Positions 27,111-39,082 of a DNA stretch of 48,661 bases are shown one piece after another. The notes beneath the pieces were generated by a model, which was not told the origin of the DNA, ran no database searches, and worked only from the letters and a program-made list of their open reading frames with translations. Origin of the DNA: a virus; IMG/VR virus record IMGVR_UViG_3300044800_000258, positions 1 through 48,661 of that record. One strand, 5' to 3'. Every line of letters begins with the position of its first letter. Within the stretch, counting starts at the first letter, position 1. The translations under genes and the position numbers were made by a program.

Positions 27111-27169
27111 GATTCGCCAAAGGTGTCGCTTTGGACAAGGGCTCTCCGCGCCGCGAGGCATCCCGATGA
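27107..27169 (+). CDS. 20-residue micro-ORF between methyltransferase and radical SAM genes
   Basis: ATG at 27107 overlaps the methyltransferase stop (ATGA) and its own TGA overlaps the radical SAM ATG (ATGA). The peptide is MRFAKGVALDKGSPRREASR, with no Cys, basic. It may simply carry ribosomes between the two genes, or it may be a peptide product. At this length coding status cannot be proved from sequence. Confidence 0.35.
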   Translation: MRFAKGVALDKGSPRREASR

Positions 27170-28149
27170 GATCGCCCTATTTTGTTGTGACTGAATTGAC
27201 TACTCGCTGCCAGCTGAAGTGCAAGGGATGCTTCTCCTCGCCCGAGGACTATCCCAAAGGGGACATGGACTTCGACTTCTACAAGAGCATCATCGATCGC
27301 ATCGATCCAAGGACAATGAGGCTCAACGAGTATGCCAACGGAGAGCCTCTCCTCCATCCGAGAGTAACCGAGATGGTGGAATACGCGACCGCAAAAGGGA
27401 TCGTCAACTATATCACTACCAACGGAATGATATGGAATGAGGACCTTTTCAGGTTCATCTTTACCCATTCCAATCTCTGCTACCAGCTTGTAGTGAGCCT
27501 TGACGGGCTTCCTGGCTTTGAGTCCAGAAGCATCGAGCTTTGCAGGCCAGGAAGCAATCGGGCGAAAATCCTTGATAACATCGCTCGCCTTCGCATGTTG
27601 AAGTGGTCCTTGGGATCAAAGACAGACCTGATTATCAAGGCCTGCGAGCGCGGCCAGGACTACGAGGAGATCGAGAACATCATTTCCTACTGGCTTTCGC
27701 AACCGGGAATTGACGTTGTGACCATAGGAAGGCTTTTCACCAGCTACTACCAAGAGCCCATGCGGATCTATCCCTGCCAGTACAGCGATGACCGTTTCAT
27801 GCTTATCCGCTGGAACGGCGAGATTGCTGTCTGCATGTACCACCCCGATGTGATGAGCAAGGGGGCCATCCCCATTGGCACGCTTGACAAGACCACGCCG
27901 TTGCTTGACTTCTACAACAACGAGGCATATACCTCTTTTCGCAGGCGGCAGGCCATGGGAGATTTCCCAGAGCCCTGCGCCCACTGCGGCATCAGTTACA
28001 CGGGGACAGGATGGAGAGGGGTGATGCGCTTCAGGGACAAGCGCCTTATCCAGAAGGATATCTACGTCCGAGGCGACCATTATAATACGCATCACAGCTT
28101 GGCGAACAAAGGAAAGCCCGACTCGGAGTATGGATACAAACCGTTATGA
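27166..28149 (+). CDS. Radical SAM enzyme with SPASM/twitch-like C-terminus
   Basis: 327 aa. The radical SAM cluster motif is C15-x3-C19-x2-C22 (CQLKCKGC). NEYANGEPLLHP replaces the usual GGEP SAM-binding loop, and YITTNGM and VVSLDG follow as in the TIM-barrel core. Near the C-terminus C-x13-G-x4-C (PCQYSDD...NGEIAVC, about residues 204-223) and C-x2-C (CAHC, about 271-274) match an auxiliary iron-sulphur domain, though the last SPASM Cys pairs are missing, so a twitch-type domain is likelier. Such enzymes modify peptides, sugars or nucleosides by radical chemistry. The substrate is unknown. Confidence 0.8.
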   Translation: MRSPYFVVTELTTRCQLKCKGCFSSPEDYPKGDMDFDFYKSIIDRIDPRTMRLNEYANGEPLLHPRVTEMVEYATAKGIVNYITTNGMIWNEDLFRFIFTHSNLCYQLVVSLDGLPGFESRSIELCRPGSNRAKILDNIARLRMLKWSLGSKTDLIIKACERGQDYEEIENIISYWLSQPGIDVVTIGRLFTSYYQEPMRIYPCQYSDDRFMLIRWNGEIAVCMYHPDVMSKGAIPIGTLDKTTPLLDFYNNEAYTSFRRRQAMGDFPEPCAHCGISYTGTGWRGVMRFRDKRLIQKDIYVRGDHYNTHHSLANKGKPDSEYGYKPL

Positions 28150-33343: not shown

Positions 33344-33919
33344 ATGAACGTCTCCTCAATCCGCTACCAGCCGGTCGAGGGGGGCGCTCTTGGCGGGCAC
33401 TTTGCCCTCCATGTGACGTTGGGGGCCGACATGGCCCCCAACGGCTTTACTACCGCTGCCTCTCTTGCCACACGCATTCACGACATCTTCGAGAGCCTCG
33501 GCCTCAAGTCCAAGATCAAAGGGGTCCTCATCGACTGCCGTGAGTCGGTGGGCGATCCCGACGAGATGTCATCCCTTCTCCAGACCCTCAAGGACTGGGG
33601 AATAACCATCGTGCTTTGGGTCGGGGACAAGACGCGCTACTCGTGGTTTGACCCAAGCTACTACATCACAGTGTTCGTCAGGACGCAGCATTGGCCCAAC
33701 TTCCGCGTCAACGAGATCCGCTATGTCATGGATTGGAATCAGAATGCATGGATCGAACCTGATGTTTACGATGTGAACGTGGGTGCAGCGAGTTACATAG
33801 TCTGGAATGATAAGATCCCCAGAGGGGCGCTTGTCCAATTTGTTACTGATTGCAAACGGCCTTGGGGCATCATCGGCAGCGCTGCATCGATCGGCTTCAA
33901 AATCAAGGAAAGTGATTGA
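33344..33919 (+). CDS. Hypothetical protein, possibly a radical-SAM-like barrel without cluster
   Basis: 191 aa; only a weak ribosome site. The alternation of strands and helices, IKGVLIDCRESVGDPDEMSS then LLQTLKDWGITIVLWVG, resembles the middle of QueE/NrdG-type radical SAM proteins, but no C-x3-C-x2-C motif is present. It may be a degenerate relative or a different alpha/beta fold. It is TTGA-coupled to the MT-A70 methylase. Confidence 0.4.
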   Translation: MNVSSIRYQPVEGGALGGHFALHVTLGADMAPNGFTTAASLATRIHDIFESLGLKSKIKGVLIDCRESVGDPDEMSSLLQTLKDWGITIVLWVGDKTRYSWFDPSYYITVFVRTQHWPNFRVNEIRYVMDWNQNAWIEPDVYDVNVGAASYIVWNDKIPRGALVQFVTDCKRPWGIIGSAASIGFKIKESD

Positions 33920-34440
33920 AGTTTCCAACAAAGAAGTACAGTATTATCTATGCTGATCCTCCTTGGGAAGTGAAGGCTGGAGCTGGGAATCTTCACATAT
34001 CTCATCAAAAGACAAGAGACCTTTGCTATTCTACGATGTCCTTGGAAGACATAAAGAATCTTCCTGTAGATCGCATAGCAAAGAAGAACTCCGTCCTTTT
34101 CTTGTGGGTCATCAACAAATACGTTGAGCAGGCTTATCAAGTTGCCCGAGCATGGAAGTTCAGACCTTCAACCATGTTGGTGTGGTGCAAAAAACCAAAA
34201 GGAAGAGGTCTTGGAGGAACTTTTGGAATATCAACAGAGTTCCTTCTATTTTGTAGACGTGGAGCAACCCATGCAAAAGAACGCCACTGGTCCACATGGT
34301 TTGAGGCCAAGCGGGGAGCCCACTCTGTTAAGCCTACAATTGCCCGAGAACTGATAGAAAAGTGTTTTGAAGGTAATAAAATAGAATTATTCGCCCGCCA
34401 AAAATCAAAGGGATGGGATGTATGGGGTGATGAGGTATGA
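33916..34440 (+). CDS. MT-A70 family N6-adenine DNA methyltransferase
   Basis: 174 aa from a TTG with AAGGA at 6 bases (overlap with the previous TGA). The catalytic DPPW is at residues 14-17 (IIYADPPWEV), and VLFLWVINKY and MLVWCKKPKGRGLGG follow as in MT-A70 phage methylases. These methylate adenine in DNA, commonly to protect against restriction. There is no partner restriction enzyme, so it is a stand-alone methylase. Its DNA is visibly more AT-rich than its neighbours. Confidence 0.85.
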   Translation: MKFPTKKYSIIYADPPWEVKAGAGNLHISHQKTRDLCYSTMSLEDIKNLPVDRIAKKNSVLFLWVINKYVEQAYQVARAWKFRPSTMLVWCKKPKGRGLGGTFGISTEFLLFCRRGATHAKERHWSTWFEAKRGAHSVKPTIARELIEKCFEGNKIELFARQKSKGWDVWGDEV

Positions 34441-36269
34441 AGCTCTTTCGCATCACACGCACAAAGTCTCTGTGCCATCAATGCCCGCTCGATAGCTACT
34501 GCACAAAGGTAAGAGGGGAAAGCGCCAGTGAAAGACCGAAGATCGCTTTCATCGGAGAAGCGCCGGGCCGGGAGGAGGATGAGAGCGGGCATCCGTTTGT
34601 CGGCTCGGCGGGCAAGGAACTTGACCGTGTGCTTGCGAAAGCAGGGCTGCATCGCCACAACGCTTACCTACTTAACCTCACCGATTGCCGCCCGCCTGAA
34701 AACGACCTTGACTCGCCTGAAGGCCAGGAGGCGCTTGAGGCGTGCCGCCCTGGCTTTGAAGAGGAACTATCATCGCTCCATCGACTGGGAGTTCGCACGC
34801 TGGTTCCGCTTGGGGCTAAACCTACAGGCGCTCTGGGCATTGAAGGAGCGATACATAAAGTCCGTGGCTCGGTCTACGAAGTCGCAATCGCAGGTCTGAA
34901 GTTCTGGACAGTGCCGACCTTTCATCCCGCCTACATCATCCGTGGCCAGTGGAGCGAAGAGCCCACCATGATCGCCGATGTGGAGAAAGCAGTCTACATC
35001 ACCACCAGGGGCTACACGCCGCCGCAGGAAGATTTCCTTCTCTTCCCCACGGTGAAAGACATCGAGGCAAGAACAAGGGATATTCTAAAGAAGAAACCTC
35101 TCCTTGGTGTCGACATCGAGACGACAGGTCTCCGCTATTGGAATAGCGAGATCTTTGTCATGGCTCTGGCTATCAACTCCGAGGAAGCCTTCTCGATTCC
35201 CTTCTATTCTCAAGGGTATGTTCCCTACTGGAAAAACGACGACCTCGCTCGTGTGAAGAACTGTCTTTACGAAATCCTTTTGAAGTGCCCGACCATGTAC
35301 CAGAACGCTCCCTTCGACGTGCCGCACTTGGAATGGCACGCCTACAAGGTCGGAAACATCGCGCACGATGTTCTATTGATTCATCATGCCATTCATCCCG
35401 AGCTGCCGCATAACCTCGGCTACATCGTCTCGATCTATGGGGCCACTCCCTACTGGAAAGACATCAAGCTTCGGTTTCCTGTGGTGCGCCAGATGCCTGA
35501 CACCGACCTTCGCATCTACAACTGCCGCGATGCAGTGGTGCTCCACCAAGTCTTGCCCTCGCTGCTTGCCGATCTCAAGGAGACAGGAACCGAGCATATC
35601 TACTACAACTATTCGATGAAGCTTATACGGCCGACGCTTTCGATCACTACCAACGGAATGCTGCTCGACCGACCAAGGCTTAACAAGTGGAAGAAGGAGC
35701 TTCAAACAGAACTTGGAAGCGCCGAAAAGAAGATCCGCAAGCTGGGGAATCTTCCCGACGAGTTCAATCTGCAAAGCCCGCATCACCTGAGCTATTGGTT
35801 TTATGGCGAGTTGCCGCGCAGCCTGCCTGCATGGAAAGAGGAGATCGCAAGCTATGACGAGAAAGGCTCTCGCAAAAAGAAAACTTCGCAGAAGTACAGC
35901 GGCCTACTACAGCGCGTCGCGTTGTATACTCAAGTCAGACCTTTGGCTCGATCGAAGTCTAAGACAAAACGCACGAATACGGGTTTTGCAAAAGATGAGA
36001 AAGCGCTCCTCCTTTCCAAGCTTGCAGCCACGACGGAGATTACTCTTCTTTCAAGCTTCCGCCGCCCGACACTCGATCACAGATCGAGATTGGAAGAACT
36101 TGCAAAGTTGCGTGAAGCACTAACTCTGTTCCAGAAGCGCCAGAAGACCGCCAAGCTTCTCTCGACTTACACCGACTTCGAGGCAGGGCCTGACATGAGG
36201 GTTCATCCGTCTTTCAAGATACATGGCACCAGTACAGGAAGACTATCTTCAGGTGAGGGTGAAGAATAA
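34437..36269 (+). CDS. Uracil-DNA glycosylase fused to the N-terminal part of a split family A DNA polymerase
   Basis: 610 aa, ATGA overlap. Residues 1-200 are a family 4-like uracil-DNA glycosylase. Four Cys (13, 16, 84, 103) suit the iron-sulphur cluster, GEAPGREEDESG is motif 1, and TFHPAYIIR is motif 2. Residues about 220-400 are a 3'-5' exonuclease with DIETTG, NAPFD and YNCRD (Exo I-III). The thumb and start of the palm follow and end at HGTSTGRLSSGEGEE, the polymerase TGRLSS motif. The protein stops exactly there. The remaining palm and fingers are at 36841-37674, after a methyltransferase gene that starts within the stop (TAATG). Confidence 0.85.
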   Translation: MKLFRITRTKSLCHQCPLDSYCTKVRGESASERPKIAFIGEAPGREEDESGHPFVGSAGKELDRVLAKAGLHRHNAYLLNLTDCRPPENDLDSPEGQEALEACRPGFEEELSSLHRLGVRTLVPLGAKPTGALGIEGAIHKVRGSVYEVAIAGLKFWTVPTFHPAYIIRGQWSEEPTMIADVEKAVYITTRGYTPPQEDFLLFPTVKDIEARTRDILKKKPLLGVDIETTGLRYWNSEIFVMALAINSEEAFSIPFYSQGYVPYWKNDDLARVKNCLYEILLKCPTMYQNAPFDVPHLEWHAYKVGNIAHDVLLIHHAIHPELPHNLGYIVSIYGATPYWKDIKLRFPVVRQMPDTDLRIYNCRDAVVLHQVLPSLLADLKETGTEHIYYNYSMKLIRPTLSITTNGMLLDRPRLNKWKKELQTELGSAEKKIRKLGNLPDEFNLQSPHHLSYWFYGELPRSLPAWKEEIASYDEKGSRKKKTSQKYSGLLQRVALYTQVRPLARSKSKTKRTNTGFAKDEKALLLSKLAATTEITLLSSFRRPTLDHRSRLEELAKLREALTLFQKRQKTAKLLSTYTDFEAGPDMRVHPSFKIHGTSTGRLSSGEGEE

Positions 36270-36844
36270 TGCTCAAGACTGTGTTCGACAACCAAGGACA
36301 GCTCCTTAACGAGATGGTTCATTTCTACTCAGCAGGGCGCATAGGGCTTGACCCTACTTATGGAAATGGATGCTTTTACAAGAAGACCAATCTTGTATTA
36401 GGTCTCTACGGAGATATAAAACTACCTGGTAAACATTTTATGGATGCGAGAAAGCTTCCCTTTCCAAGCGATTCTCAAACCTCGATAATGTTCGACCCGC
36501 CCTTTCTCCCGGGAGCCTCTCCGAAAAAGACAGGCATAATAAACAATCGCTTTGGGTGGTTCAGAACAATCAAGGATGTATGGGATATGTATGAAGGGTC
36601 TCTGCGCGAGTTCTCTCGTGTTGTCAAAAGAAATGGAATCTTGTACTTCAAGTGCCAAGATACTTGCAACTGTAACAAACAATGGTGGTCGCATGTGTGG
36701 ATTATCAACAAAGCTGAAGAGCTGGGGCTACATTTGGAAGACCTTTTTATTCTTGTTGCAAAGAACCGCCTTACTGACAACCGTTGGAAGACACAGCGCC
36801 ACGCGCGGAAGTTTCACAGCTACTTTTTGGTGTTTAGAAAATGA
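36269..36844 (+). CDS. DNA methyltransferase inserted between polymerase halves
   Basis: 191 aa. It begins within the stop codon of the polymerase N-half (TAATG) and ends with an ATGA overlap into the C-half. The catalytic motif IV is DPPF (76-79, IMFDPPFLPG). SAM-side features include GLDPTYGNGCFY; YFKCQDTC, KAEELG and RKFHSYFLVFRK match a family of phage DNA methyltransferases. No specificity is evident. By eye the DNA is more AT-rich than the polymerase N-half. It is not an HNH or LAGLIDADG homing nuclease, and there is no space for intron or intein elements. Confidence 0.8.
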   Translation: MLKTVFDNQGQLLNEMVHFYSAGRIGLDPTYGNGCFYKKTNLVLGLYGDIKLPGKHFMDARKLPFPSDSQTSIMFDPPFLPGASPKKTGIINNRFGWFRTIKDVWDMYEGSLREFSRVVKRNGILYFKCQDTCNCNKQWWSHVWIINKAEELGLHLEDLFILVAKNRLTDNRWKTQRHARKFHSYFLVFRK

Positions 36845-37674
36845 ACGCTCAGAACATACCCGAGGAAGCGCGAAAGGTCTTTGTTCCAGCACCCGGACAT
36901 GTCTTTGTCAGTGGTGACTTCTCAAACCTTGAACTTCGAGTCATGGCTTATGACTTTGACGATGACGTACTTCAAAAACAGTTTACTGAAGGAGTAAACA
37001 TTCATGACGAAAACACGAAAGCGATGTTCGGAATCACCAAAGAGCACAAAGATTGGACTTATATTCGCAAAGCTGCGAAGATCGCTGTCTTTGGAAGATC
37101 GTATGGCGGGGGAGTGCGAGGTATCTTTGAACGTGTCAGTGCGAAAGTACCGGAGGTCAACTTCACAATGGCAATGTTTAGAAGTGCGGATAAAAAATAT
37201 TTCGACACACATCCGAAACTTGCAAAAGGCTTTGAACAAGCATCCCGAGTTGCGCGAGATACTCGTATTTGCACAACTGCGACGGGCCGAAAAAGATTCT
37301 TTCTCGGAATGCCAGCCGAAGTCGAGCGCGAAGGAATTAACACGCGCATCCAAGGACCTGCGGGCGACATCGAGAACGAAAGCCTGATCGATCTCTATGA
37401 AGAGTGCCTGAAGCACGATGACTGGAAGCTTGTAGCAACCGTCCATGACAGCAACGTCATCGAGTGTCCGATCGCGGAAGTAAACGCGTGTGCCAAAGCG
37501 ATGAAGTGTATCATGGAGAAGAGCCGAAAACTTTGGGGAAAGGAGTTGGTCTTTCCTGTTGACATCAGCGTTTCTACAACATCTTGGGGGGAGATGAAAG
37601 ACCTTGAAGAGTGGACCAAAGAGCAAATCAAAGTCAAAAGCAAGAAGCGCAAAGCCACTCGCCCCAAATCTTAA
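36841..37674 (+). CDS. DNA polymerase family A, catalytic C-terminal half
   Basis: 277 aa. It starts MNAQNIPEEARKVF, the NxQNIP motif that normally follows TGRLSS in the same chain. Motif A is GDFSNLELR with D26. Motif B is R76-x3-K80-x3-F84-x3-Y88-G. Motif C is VHDS at 201-204, with Ser where Glu is usual. These are the metal- and nucleotide-binding parts of the palm and fingers. F84 corresponds to Phe762 of E. coli Pol I, a residue type common in virulent phages. It must pair with the N-half (ending at 36269) to make an active polymerase. The end overlaps the DUF3987 gene. Confidence 0.9.
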   Translation: MNAQNIPEEARKVFVPAPGHVFVSGDFSNLELRVMAYDFDDDVLQKQFTEGVNIHDENTKAMFGITKEHKDWTYIRKAAKIAVFGRSYGGGVRGIFERVSAKVPEVNFTMAMFRSADKKYFDTHPKLAKGFEQASRVARDTRICTTATGRKRFFLGMPAEVEREGINTRIQGPAGDIENESLIDLYEECLKHDDWKLVATVHDSNVIECPIAEVNACAKAMKCIMEKSRKLWGKELVFPVDISVSTTSWGEMKDLEEWTKEQIKVKSKKRKATRPKS

Positions 37675-39082
37675 CGGCGCACCCGAGCCTTACGATGAGA
37701 GCAAGGCTAAGGGACGGTTCTGGAAGGACGACCCAGGGGATGAGCTTCTTCCCAAGCGCAAAGGCTTCATCACCGATTGCGTCTCCCGCCATCGAGGAAA
37801 AGAGGTCACAACGCTCTTCACCATCTGGAGCACGCTCTTCGTCTTGTCCTCGGCGGTCAAGCGCGAGGCATGGCTGCGGTTTGGCGAGAAGAAGCTTTAC
37901 ACCAATTTCTACTGCATCCTTGTGGGGCCTGCGGGGATCGCCCACAAGACCGAGGTCATCAACGATGCCATCGTGCTGCTCGAAGGCTTTGGCCAGTTCA
38001 TCGAGAGCCCTCAGTTCAAGTTTATGAAAGAGATGAACATCGTTGCTGATAAGGCATCTCCCGAAGCACTTCTTGAAGCTTTGCGCCCAAGAAATAAAGA
38101 GCCTAAAGGGAAGCCGTACTTTCAATTTCAGGATTCTAAAGGAAATCCAATTATCAATTCAGCGACTGGGAGGCCTCTATGGTATGTGAAAACCTCGGAG
38201 ACTGCGATCGTGGCCCACGAGTTTTCAACCCTTGCGGGCCAGCAGCGATACAACATGGGCCTTACGGACAACTTGCTCGCCCTCTACGAGTGCGACCGCC
38301 CTTTCACGTGGCGCACAGTGAAGCGGGGAAGGCCCGTTGTGTTCAAGAATCTCCATACCACACTCATCGCGGGGACCACCCTTACATCATTCAGGGAAAG
38401 CTTGAGCGAGAATGTGAGAAGCGACGGGTTTCTCTCGCGTTCCGTGATGGTCTACTGCCCCAAGACGGTAGGGAGGCGCTTCTCGCGCCCCCGCATCGTC
38501 CCTGATGCACCCAACGAAGGAGATCTTCAAAAGAGGCTTGCATGGATCTCCGAGCACGCCGTGGGAGAGTTCGACCTGTCAAGCGACGCCGACGCCTATT
38601 ACGACAGGTGGTACATTAGGTGGCGGGATGAGCTTGAGGATGACTCGCAGTTTCAGGGCCTCAAAAGCCGTCTCCACGTCCTTGTGTTGAAGGTAGCGTT
38701 GCTGCTTCGCCTTCAACGATATGAAGTGGCCTCGAAGCTTATTGACAAACAGGACATAAAAGATGCAATCCTCATTATCAGGAAGACTTGGTTTGAAGCA
38801 TTGCCTGTGATGCGGGGATTTGAGAGCGCCTACGCGAAGCCTTTCCTCGGCCGCATGGAGGAGTACATACGCTCGCGCGGAGAGGTGGACCGATTGAAGC
38901 TGCTGCGCCAAGGCAAGTTCAACGCCGCCGAGATAAAGGAAGGGATCACGATGCTAAGCGAGGAAGGAAAGCTTGAGATATGGCAGAACGGAAAGATCGT
39001 AAGCTACCCCACATCCTATGGGAAGGAAACATACAAGTGGTGCGGGGAGCGTTGGTTGGGATCAAAGGGTCTGGAGGAATGA
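37604..39082 (+). CDS. DUF3987-like helicase/primase-associated protein
   Basis: 492 aa. The only usable start is a TTG at 37604 inside the polymerase C-half, overlapping it by 71 bases. The N-terminus is basic and low-complexity (Lys/Ser). The Walker A-like loop is VGPAGIAHKT (about 107-116), with the Lys kept. Regions with EFSTLAGQQRYN, LIAGTTLTSF and DGFLSRSVMVY correspond to DUF3987 proteins, which replace replicative helicases in some phages and mobile elements. It is directly after the polymerase, so it is the likely replicative ATPase. The degenerate loop leaves activity uncertain. Confidence 0.7.
   Translation: MKSGPKSKSKSKARSAKPLAPNLNGAPEPYDESKAKGRFWKDDPGDELLPKRKGFITDCVSRHRGKEVTTLFTIWSTLFVLSSAVKREAWLRFGEKKLYTNFYCILVGPAGIAHKTEVINDAIVLLEGFGQFIESPQFKFMKEMNIVADKASPEALLEALRPRNKEPKGKPYFQFQDSKGNPIINSATGRPLWYVKTSETAIVAHEFSTLAGQQRYNMGLTDNLLALYECDRPFTWRTVKRGRPVVFKNLHTTLIAGTTLTSFRESLSENVRSDGFLSRSVMVYCPKTVGRRFSRPRIVPDAPNEGDLQKRLAWISEHAVGEFDLSSDADAYYDRWYIRWRDELEDDSQFQGLKSRLHVLVLKVALLLRLQRYEVASKLIDKQDIKDAILIIRKTWFEALPVMRGFESAYAKPFLGRMEEYIRSRGEVDRLKLLRQGKFNAAEIKEGITMLSEEGKLEIWQNGKIVSYPTSYGKETYKWCGERWLGSKGLEE

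What the first reader, a model, noticed from the sequence alone, without database searches (positions are those of the whole stretch)
34437..37674. Family A DNA polymerase split in two, with a DNA methyltransferase gene exactly between TGRLSS and NxQNIP
The N-half ends at TSTGRLSSGEGEE and the C-half begins MNAQNIPEEARKVF. These are parts of one contiguous motif in normal Pol A. The only sequence between them is a 191-aa methyltransferase gene that shares one base with the upstream stop (TAATG) and four with the downstream start (ATGA). Removing it restores an in-frame polymerase with Exo I-III and motifs A-C. Known breaks at this point in phage polymerases involve introns, inteins or homing nucleases; a methyltransferase is unexpected. 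The two halves must assemble as separate chains, or be rejoined in an unknown way.
Basis: partly seen in the sequence, partly recalled or inferred. Interest (0 to 1): 0.85.

Follow-up and report, generated by a model that had tools for sequence, protein, structure and literature searches.

The report
Split phage polymerase holding methyltransferase gene
In this uncultured phage the gene for the DNA-copying enzyme is cut into two separate genes at a spot long known to attract mobile DNA, and a DNA methyltransferase gene now sits in the gap where its nearest relatives carry homing nucleases or another gene, so the enzyme very probably works as two protein chains.

Summary
A UDG-fused family A DNA polymerase is split into polN (34437-36269) and polC (36841-37674), with a 191-aa methyltransferase gene (36269-36844) filling the whole gap. 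Three related IMG/VR contigs (73-81% identity in polN) are split at the same point but hold other genes: an HNH endonuclease with an AP2-like domain, a different HNH_3 endonuclease, and a 111-aa orphan. The four split polymerases form one clade (100/100). More distant relatives are unsplit, and two carry HNH-bearing inteins at this site. Published group I introns of phages SPO1, SP82, Bastille and Pf-WMP3 lie at site 674, exactly where polC begins. No intron or intein part was found here, while a positive control was. Catalytic residues are kept in both halves, and dN/dS is about 0.06-0.14. The best reading is a 'gene in pieces': a free-standing homing endonuclease broke polA, the two chains stayed functional, and the occupant was later exchanged, here for a methyltransferase. 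This is a new variant of a known kind. The unusual points are a split family A polymerase fixed in a clade and the exchange of its occupant for a non-nuclease gene. Two-chain assembly is inferred, not shown.

The parts
34437..36269 (+). polN: N-terminal half of a UDG-fused family A DNA polymerase (family 4 UDG with four Cys, 3'-5' exonuclease with Exo I-III, start of the polymerase domain up to TGRLSS), then an acidic tail GEGEE
   Evidence: Pfam UDG 4.7e-24 and DNA_pol_A 7.4e-8; phrog_17 positions 475-978; Exo and Cys residues invariant against relatives
36252..36269 (+). tail codons GEGEE plus stop: purine-rich stretch that may double as the ribosome-binding region of the inserted gene; counterparts GEGQEESESV (L103, L104) and GD (L135)
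   Evidence: sequence; the dual role is inferred
36269..36844 (+). inserted 191-aa DNA methyltransferase (motif I DPTYGNG, motif IV DPPF, KCQD, HARKFHSYF)
   Evidence: phrog_24333 8.7e-49; N6_N4_Mtase 0.0028, below its cut-off; motif residues near-invariant across 35 homologues; AF2 pLDDT 80, fold like TTHA0409 and Trm11
36841..37674 (+). polC: C-terminal half of the polymerase (N675-equivalent onward; motif A GDFSNLELR, motif B RKAAKIAVFGRSYGG, motif C VHDS), with a basic C-terminal tail
   Evidence: Pfam DNA_pol_A 1.6e-36; phrog_17 positions 981-1254; AF2 pLDDT 92, TM 0.77 to Bst/Taq polymerase
36844..36844 (+). split point: first base of the codon for the N675 equivalent (Taq N580), i.e. 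group I intron site 674 in E. coli numbering
   Evidence: PDB profile alignment: polC residue 2 = 1taq residue 580; site 674 from PMC3428280
33916..34440 (+). second, unrelated methyltransferase (MT-A70 family) directly upstream of polN, TTG start, ATGA overlap with polN; absent from the three split relatives
   Evidence: Pfam MT-A70 2.4e-20; the gene before polN is adjacent to polN in L103, L104, L135 with no MT-A70 between
37604..39082 (+). DUF3987 / primase-like gene that follows the polymerase in all relatives; its start overlaps the end of polC
   Evidence: Pfam DUF3987 1.2e-13, phrog_14296 6.3e-20; same order in vir526

Best explanation
This is a 'gene in pieces'. A free-standing HNH homing endonuclease gene inserted into polA at the classic mobile-element site between GRLSS and N-x-Q-N (E. 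coli site 674) in the ancestor of this clade, without an intron or intein to remove it. polA became two genes translated in series from one message. The inserted gene takes its start from the end of polN, and polC starts at or next to the insert's stop codon by re-initiation or its own weak ribosome-binding site. The two chains fold as exo/thumb/part of palm and palm/fingers, and assemble into a working replicative polymerase. Once the break was tolerated the occupant could be exchanged: relatives hold two different HNH genes and an orphan ORF, and this genome holds a DNA methyltransferase, probably a modification or anti-restriction gene of the phage. Shown: the split, the identity of the occupants, the shared site, single-clade ancestry, retained catalytic residues, purifying selection, absence of detectable intron or intein. 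Inferred: that an HNH came first, that the occupants were exchanged by recombination, two-chain assembly, methyltransferase activity.
For: Same break with four different occupants in four related genomes: window, L103 (HNH + AP2), L104 (orphan), L135 (HNH_3). One clade with 100/100 support; outgroups unsplit or intein-bearing. Shared junction remnants: GGWGA after SS, and NTR-AACGCYCARAAY at the 3' side. dN/dS: polN 0.06-0.08, polC 0.07-0.14; for the closest pair L103/L104 0.079 and 0.075. Catalytic D26, E31, K80, Q171, H202, D203 of polC are invariant against unsplit polymerases; Exo I-III are kept. No Rfam intron in the window even at E<=10, while the Pf-WMP3 intron at the same site is found at 1.2e-5; no intein domain. 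Introns of SPO1, SP82, Bastille and Pf-WMP3 sit at site 674 (PMC3428280). Precedents for function: Aeh1 NrdA, and phage 25 gp43A/B, which co-purify and have polymerase activity (PMC2988022). The cultured OM43 phage MEP401 has a family A polymerase split by a small orphan ORF (PMC10580990). Patchy recombination inside polC between phages with different occupants.
Against: No intermediate with HNH and methyltransferase together was found, so the order HNH first, methyltransferase later is parsimony, not observation. The split is between residues that contact DNA in normal Pol I, so assembly must be precise. polC of L103 has no ATG or GTG start before its motif (ATA, or TTG after it), so its expression is unclear. 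No RNA or protein data exist.
Confidence: 0.8

Rival explanations
1. The insert is (or lies within) a self-splicing intron whose ORF is a methyltransferase; the mature message is one polymerase gene.
For: Group I introns occur at this very site in other phages (PMC3428280).
Against: The insert is coding from end to end and overlaps both neighbours; the four inserts share no core sequence; no Rfam intron family matches even at E<=10, while the Pf-WMP3 intron is recovered with the same tool. Frame offsets differ between genomes.
Confidence: 0.04
2. Protein-level rejoining: a split or fractured-gene intein joins the two chains after translation.
For: Inteins occupy the same site in distant relatives L111 and L117; a DNA polymerase with a split intein and HNH is reported in phage MIJ3 (PMC6892783).
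Against: polN ends 5 residues after SS (2 in L135, 10 in L103 and L104) and polC starts one residue before N675, so there is no room for intein halves.
Confidence: 0.02
3. The polymerase is a decaying remnant; the phage uses another polymerase and the halves are dying.
For: Motif C reads HDS instead of HDE.
Against: HDS or HDQ is common in unsplit relatives too. All other catalytic residues are kept and dN/dS is low in both halves. No other PolA match lies in the record beyond these halves; other polymerase families were not searched for.
Confidence: 0.06
4. Independent insertions: the methyltransferase itself entered intact polA directly, and the HNH and orphan insertions in relatives are separate events at a fragile or permissive site.
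For: The site is a repeated target (introns, inteins, HNH). Occupants are unrelated.
Against: All four split genes form one clade, and the junction bases are shared, including the NTR codon in place of P674 and the GGWGA start of the tail. The methyltransferase family is not a habitual splitter: of 73 loci with both neighbours only the window's gene shows it, within the power of that test.
Confidence: 0.1
5. Assembly chimera.
For: Metagenome contig; a step in GC content (44% in the insert against 52-55% in most neighbours).
Against: Seamless stop/start overlaps at both ends, and the same architecture at the same point in three other contigs.
Confidence: 0.01

Closest known systems
Aeromonas phage Aeh1 NrdA-a/NrdA-b split by mobE (genes-in-pieces; described in PMC2988022)
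   Same: Essential replication enzyme broken into two ORFs at a conserved region by an inserted gene; function kept by two chains
   Different: Different enzyme; the insert there is still a homing endonuclease, here a methyltransferase in the window (HNH only in relatives)
T4-type phage 25 / 44RR gp43A-gp43B split DNA polymerase (PMC2988022)
   Same: Replicative DNA polymerase split, with different inserts in related phages (seg gene or untranslated spacer); halves co-purify and are active
   Different: Family B polymerase, other site; no methyltransferase
Methylophilales phages MEP401/MEP402 split family A DNAP (PMC10580990)
   Same: Family A polymerase in two ORFs around a small ORF of unknown function, in cultured phages
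   Different: Break lies about 20 residues further on, before motif A; no UDG domain reported; occupant unknown; the authors suspected an intron
Group I introns in PolA of SPO1, SP82, Bastille, Pf-WMP3 (site 674) with HNH nicking endonucleases (PMC3428280)
   Same: Same insertion site in the same gene family; HNH as mobile agent
   Different: Those are spliced introns; here there is no intron and two chains
Inteins with HNH at GRLA|C in L111 and L117 (this work)
   Same: Same site within a few codons, same UDG-polymerase family
   Different: Protein splicing would restore one chain there; nothing of the sort here

Membership tests
Genes-in-pieces by free-standing homing endonuclease | Conserved gene broken into two ORFs relative to intact homologues | tested here: met
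   phrog_17 contiguous 475-978 | 981-1254; unsplit vir526 and other relatives
Genes-in-pieces by free-standing homing endonuclease | Homing endonuclease gene between the pieces | tested here: not met
   Window holds a methyltransferase; the feature is met in relatives L103 and L135
Genes-in-pieces by free-standing homing endonuclease | No intron or intein to remove the insert | tested here: met
   with positive control
Genes-in-pieces by free-standing homing endonuclease | Both pieces still under selection | tested here: met
   dN/dS 0.06-0.14; catalytic residues invariant
Genes-in-pieces by free-standing homing endonuclease | Two chains assemble into an active enzyme | not testable with these tools
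   needs co-expression or mass spectrometry; no two-chain prediction available
Group I intron insertion | Ribozyme core in the insert | tested here: not met
   no Rfam match at E<=10; control found
Intein or split intein | Splicing domains flanking the insert | tested here: not met
   polN and polC end within a few residues of the junction; no intein domain; present in L111 and L117
UDG-fused family A DNA polymerase (phrog_17) | UDG family 4 + exonuclease + polymerase motifs A-C | tested here: met
   motif C is HDS
DNA N4/N6 methyltransferase (phrog_24333) | AdoMet motif I and DPPF/Y motif IV on a methyltransferase fold | tested here: met
   substrate and activity not testable here

The most novel reading that the evidence does not exclude
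The split site has become a stable cargo slot, and the occupant is more than a passenger: made between the two polymerase chains by coupled translation, the methyltransferase joins the two-chain polymerase and methylates new DNA as it is copied, giving a three-chain modifying replicase.
Probability: 0.06. Interest if true: 0.85.

Novelty: new variant of a known kind. Interest (0 to 1): 0.57.

Why it matters
It shows that a family A replicative polymerase can be broken at its DNA-contacting GRLSS/NxQNIP region and stay under selection as two chains across a clade, and that the gap opened at a homing-endonuclease site can be refilled by unrelated genes, including a DNA methyltransferase. This gives a natural split point for a two-part polymerase, and a clear comparative case of how selfish inserts turn into exchangeable gene slots.

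Tried and rejected
Single-sequence scans of viral contigs with polC or the methyltransferase found nothing; alignments worked. A scan of bacterial and archaeal genomes found no relative. Intron: rejected with a positive control. Split intein: rejected for lack of room. Methyltransferase as a habitual gene splitter: not supported (the test only sees genes whose intact form is among the fetched loci). The orphan insert of L104 has no relative in PHROGs, Pfam, phages or viral contigs. A co-conversion tract starting at the insert: recombination is visible, but the clearest patch lies at polC codons 60-135, not at the junction, so it shows mosaicism, not homing. Adjacency of this methyltransferase with MT-A70 genes elsewhere: only 3 of 80 loci, weak. 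Paper searches for a methyltransferase in a split polymerase gave none; the library lacks many subscription papers.
Full report
Observation. The window is a 48,661-base virus record. Pfam and PHROGs identify a family 4 UDG plus the start of DNA_pol_A in polN, and the rest of DNA_pol_A in polC. PHROG 17 is matched contiguously, 475-978 then 981-1254. The nearest annotated relative, vir526 (BK063670, host given as Methanomicrobiales), has one unbroken polymerase followed by the same DUF3987/primase gene.

Where the break is. Profile alignment to solved structures puts polC residue 2 at Taq residue 580, in NLQNIP. This is N675 in E. coli numbering (my own knowledge for the conversion). Group I introns of SPO1, SP82, Bastille and Pf-WMP3 are at site 674 and that of phiL7 at 676 (PMC3428280). 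polC therefore starts exactly at a well-known mobile-element site in phage PolA. polN ends at SS followed by GEGEE; the three residues T-D-P of a normal polymerase are in neither chain.

Relatives. Alignments of the halves recovered three close relatives in IMG/VR: L103 (3300032897_000008), L104 = L088 (3300032893_000070) and L135 (3300035459_000076), 73-81% identical in polN and about 71-78% in polC. All are split at the same point, and each has a different gene in the gap. L103 has a 163-aa HNH endonuclease with an AP2-like domain. L135 has a 149-aa HNH_3 endonuclease of another type. L104 has a 111-aa orphan. The two HNH proteins each have relatives in more than a thousand phage records. 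A tree of 18 polymerases gives the four split genes one branch with 100/100 support, with the window next to L135 (85/73, weak); all others are single-frame or intein-bearing. Two distant relatives, L111 and L117, carry HNH-bearing inteins at GRLA|C, the same place within a few codons.

Junctions. The four 5' junctions begin GGWGA after the SS codons, and the four 3' junctions read ATG, GTG, ATA or ATA directly before AACGCYCARAAY. Shared remnants and a shared clade favour one ancestral break. In the two HNH-bearing genomes the nuclease stop codon TAA overlaps the AAC codon, a GGGGGT lies a few bases before the ATA, and no ATG precedes the motif; in L104 and the window the codon has become GTG and ATG. 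I read this as improvement of the polC start after the break (inference). The acidic tails of polN (GEGEE, GEGQEESESV, GD) coincide with purine-rich sequence that could serve as ribosome-binding region for the inserted gene (inference).

Not spliced. No Rfam family matches the insert at E<=10 (also for the wider region and the relatives), while the spliced Pf-WMP3 intron at the same site is found with the same tool at 1.2e-5. No intein domain is present, and polN and polC leave no room for intein halves.

Still functional. Nei-Gojobori dN/dS is 0.06-0.08 for polN and 0.07-0.14 for polC (several pairs have saturated dS and give upper bounds). For the least saturated pair, L103/L104, the values are 0.079 and 0.075. 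polC residues D26, E31, K80, Q171, H202 and D203 are invariant against unsplit polymerases; Exo I-III and the four UDG cysteines are kept. HDS in motif C is also found in unsplit relatives and is not decay. The polC model (pLDDT 92) matches Bst, Taq and Klenow at TM about 0.77 over about 265 columns. All four polC proteins have extra basic C-terminal tails (8-12 K/R) that unsplit relatives mostly lack, overlapping the next gene's start. Whether basic and acidic tails help assembly is an open question.

The methyltransferase. It belongs to phrog_24333 (8.7e-49). Relatives at up to 49% identity occur in many viral contigs, with motif I, DPPF, KCQD and HARK nearly invariant. The fold model (pLDDT 80) is nearest to DNA N4/N6 methyltransferases such as TTHA0409 and to the tRNA enzyme Trm11, at modest TM scores of 0.4-0.5. 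Its GC is 44% against 52-55% in most neighbouring genes, though polC is also low at 48%. Of 73 loci where both neighbours could be read (including re-fetched copies of the window), only the window's shows a split gene, so this family is not itself a habitual splitter. A second, unrelated MT-A70 methyltransferase lies directly upstream of polN in the window only.

Recombination. polC codons 60-135 of L104 are about 74-89% identical to the window but 64-73% to L103, the reverse of most of the gene. Phages with different occupants thus exchange parts of this gene, which gives a route for exchanging occupants. The patch does not start at the junction, so it does not prove homing.

Precedents. Genes-in-pieces enzymes are known: Aeh1 NrdA, T4 topoisomerase, and phage 25/44RR gp43A/B, whose halves (phage 25) co-purify and are active (PMC2988022). 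MEP401 and MEP402 have a split family A polymerase around an orphan ORF (PMC10580990); I find that break lies about 20 residues downstream of the present one. I found no paper on a methyltransferase in this position. Verdict: a new variant of a known kind, real and informative, with two-chain function inferred.

Noticed in passing
L111:3579-4424 and L117:7786-8634: Inteins in distant UDG-polymerases contain a 179-aa HNH endonuclease ORF in the +1 reading frame relative to the intein; the two HNH ORFs are 56% identical while the intein frame is 36% identical. An overlapping-frame endonuclease nested in an intein.
   Followed up: partly
33916-34440: MT-A70 methyltransferase with TTG start overlapping the upstream stop and ATGA overlap with polN; absent in L103, L104, L135. 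GC 43%, third-position GC 40%, the lowest of the genes measured.
   Followed up: partly
L103:2911-2930 and L135:7248-7280: polC in the two HNH-bearing relatives lacks ATG before its motif; ATA with GGGGGT a few bases upstream, or an upstream GTG in L135, may be the start. Possible non-standard start codon.
   Followed up: partly
37596-37674: Basic C-terminal tail on polC (10 K/R in 26 residues), present in all four split polymerases and absent in most unsplit ones, overprinting the start of the next gene.
   Followed up: partly
L104:7845-8180: 111-aa orphan ORF occupying the split site in a close relative; no homologue found in PHROGs, Pfam, phages or viral contigs.
   Followed up: yes
L105:2600-2660: The unsplit relative L105 has an enlarged loop SSGNKKEGEAGN where others have SSxxPN; possibly a scar of a lost insert.
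   Followed up: no
37420-37470: Motif C reads HDS instead of HDE in the whole split clade and several unsplit relatives.
   Followed up: partly
27166-28149: Radical SAM domain protein (phrog_1802, 5e-9) in the early gene region.
   Followed up: no
33344-33919: 191-aa gene of no known family (Pfam, PHROGs), conserved upstream of the polymerase in all four split-clade genomes.
   Followed up: partly
L029, L058, L065: In three viral contigs a relative of this methyltransferase sits directly beside an MT-A70 methyltransferase gene; in the window the two flank polN.
   Followed up: partly
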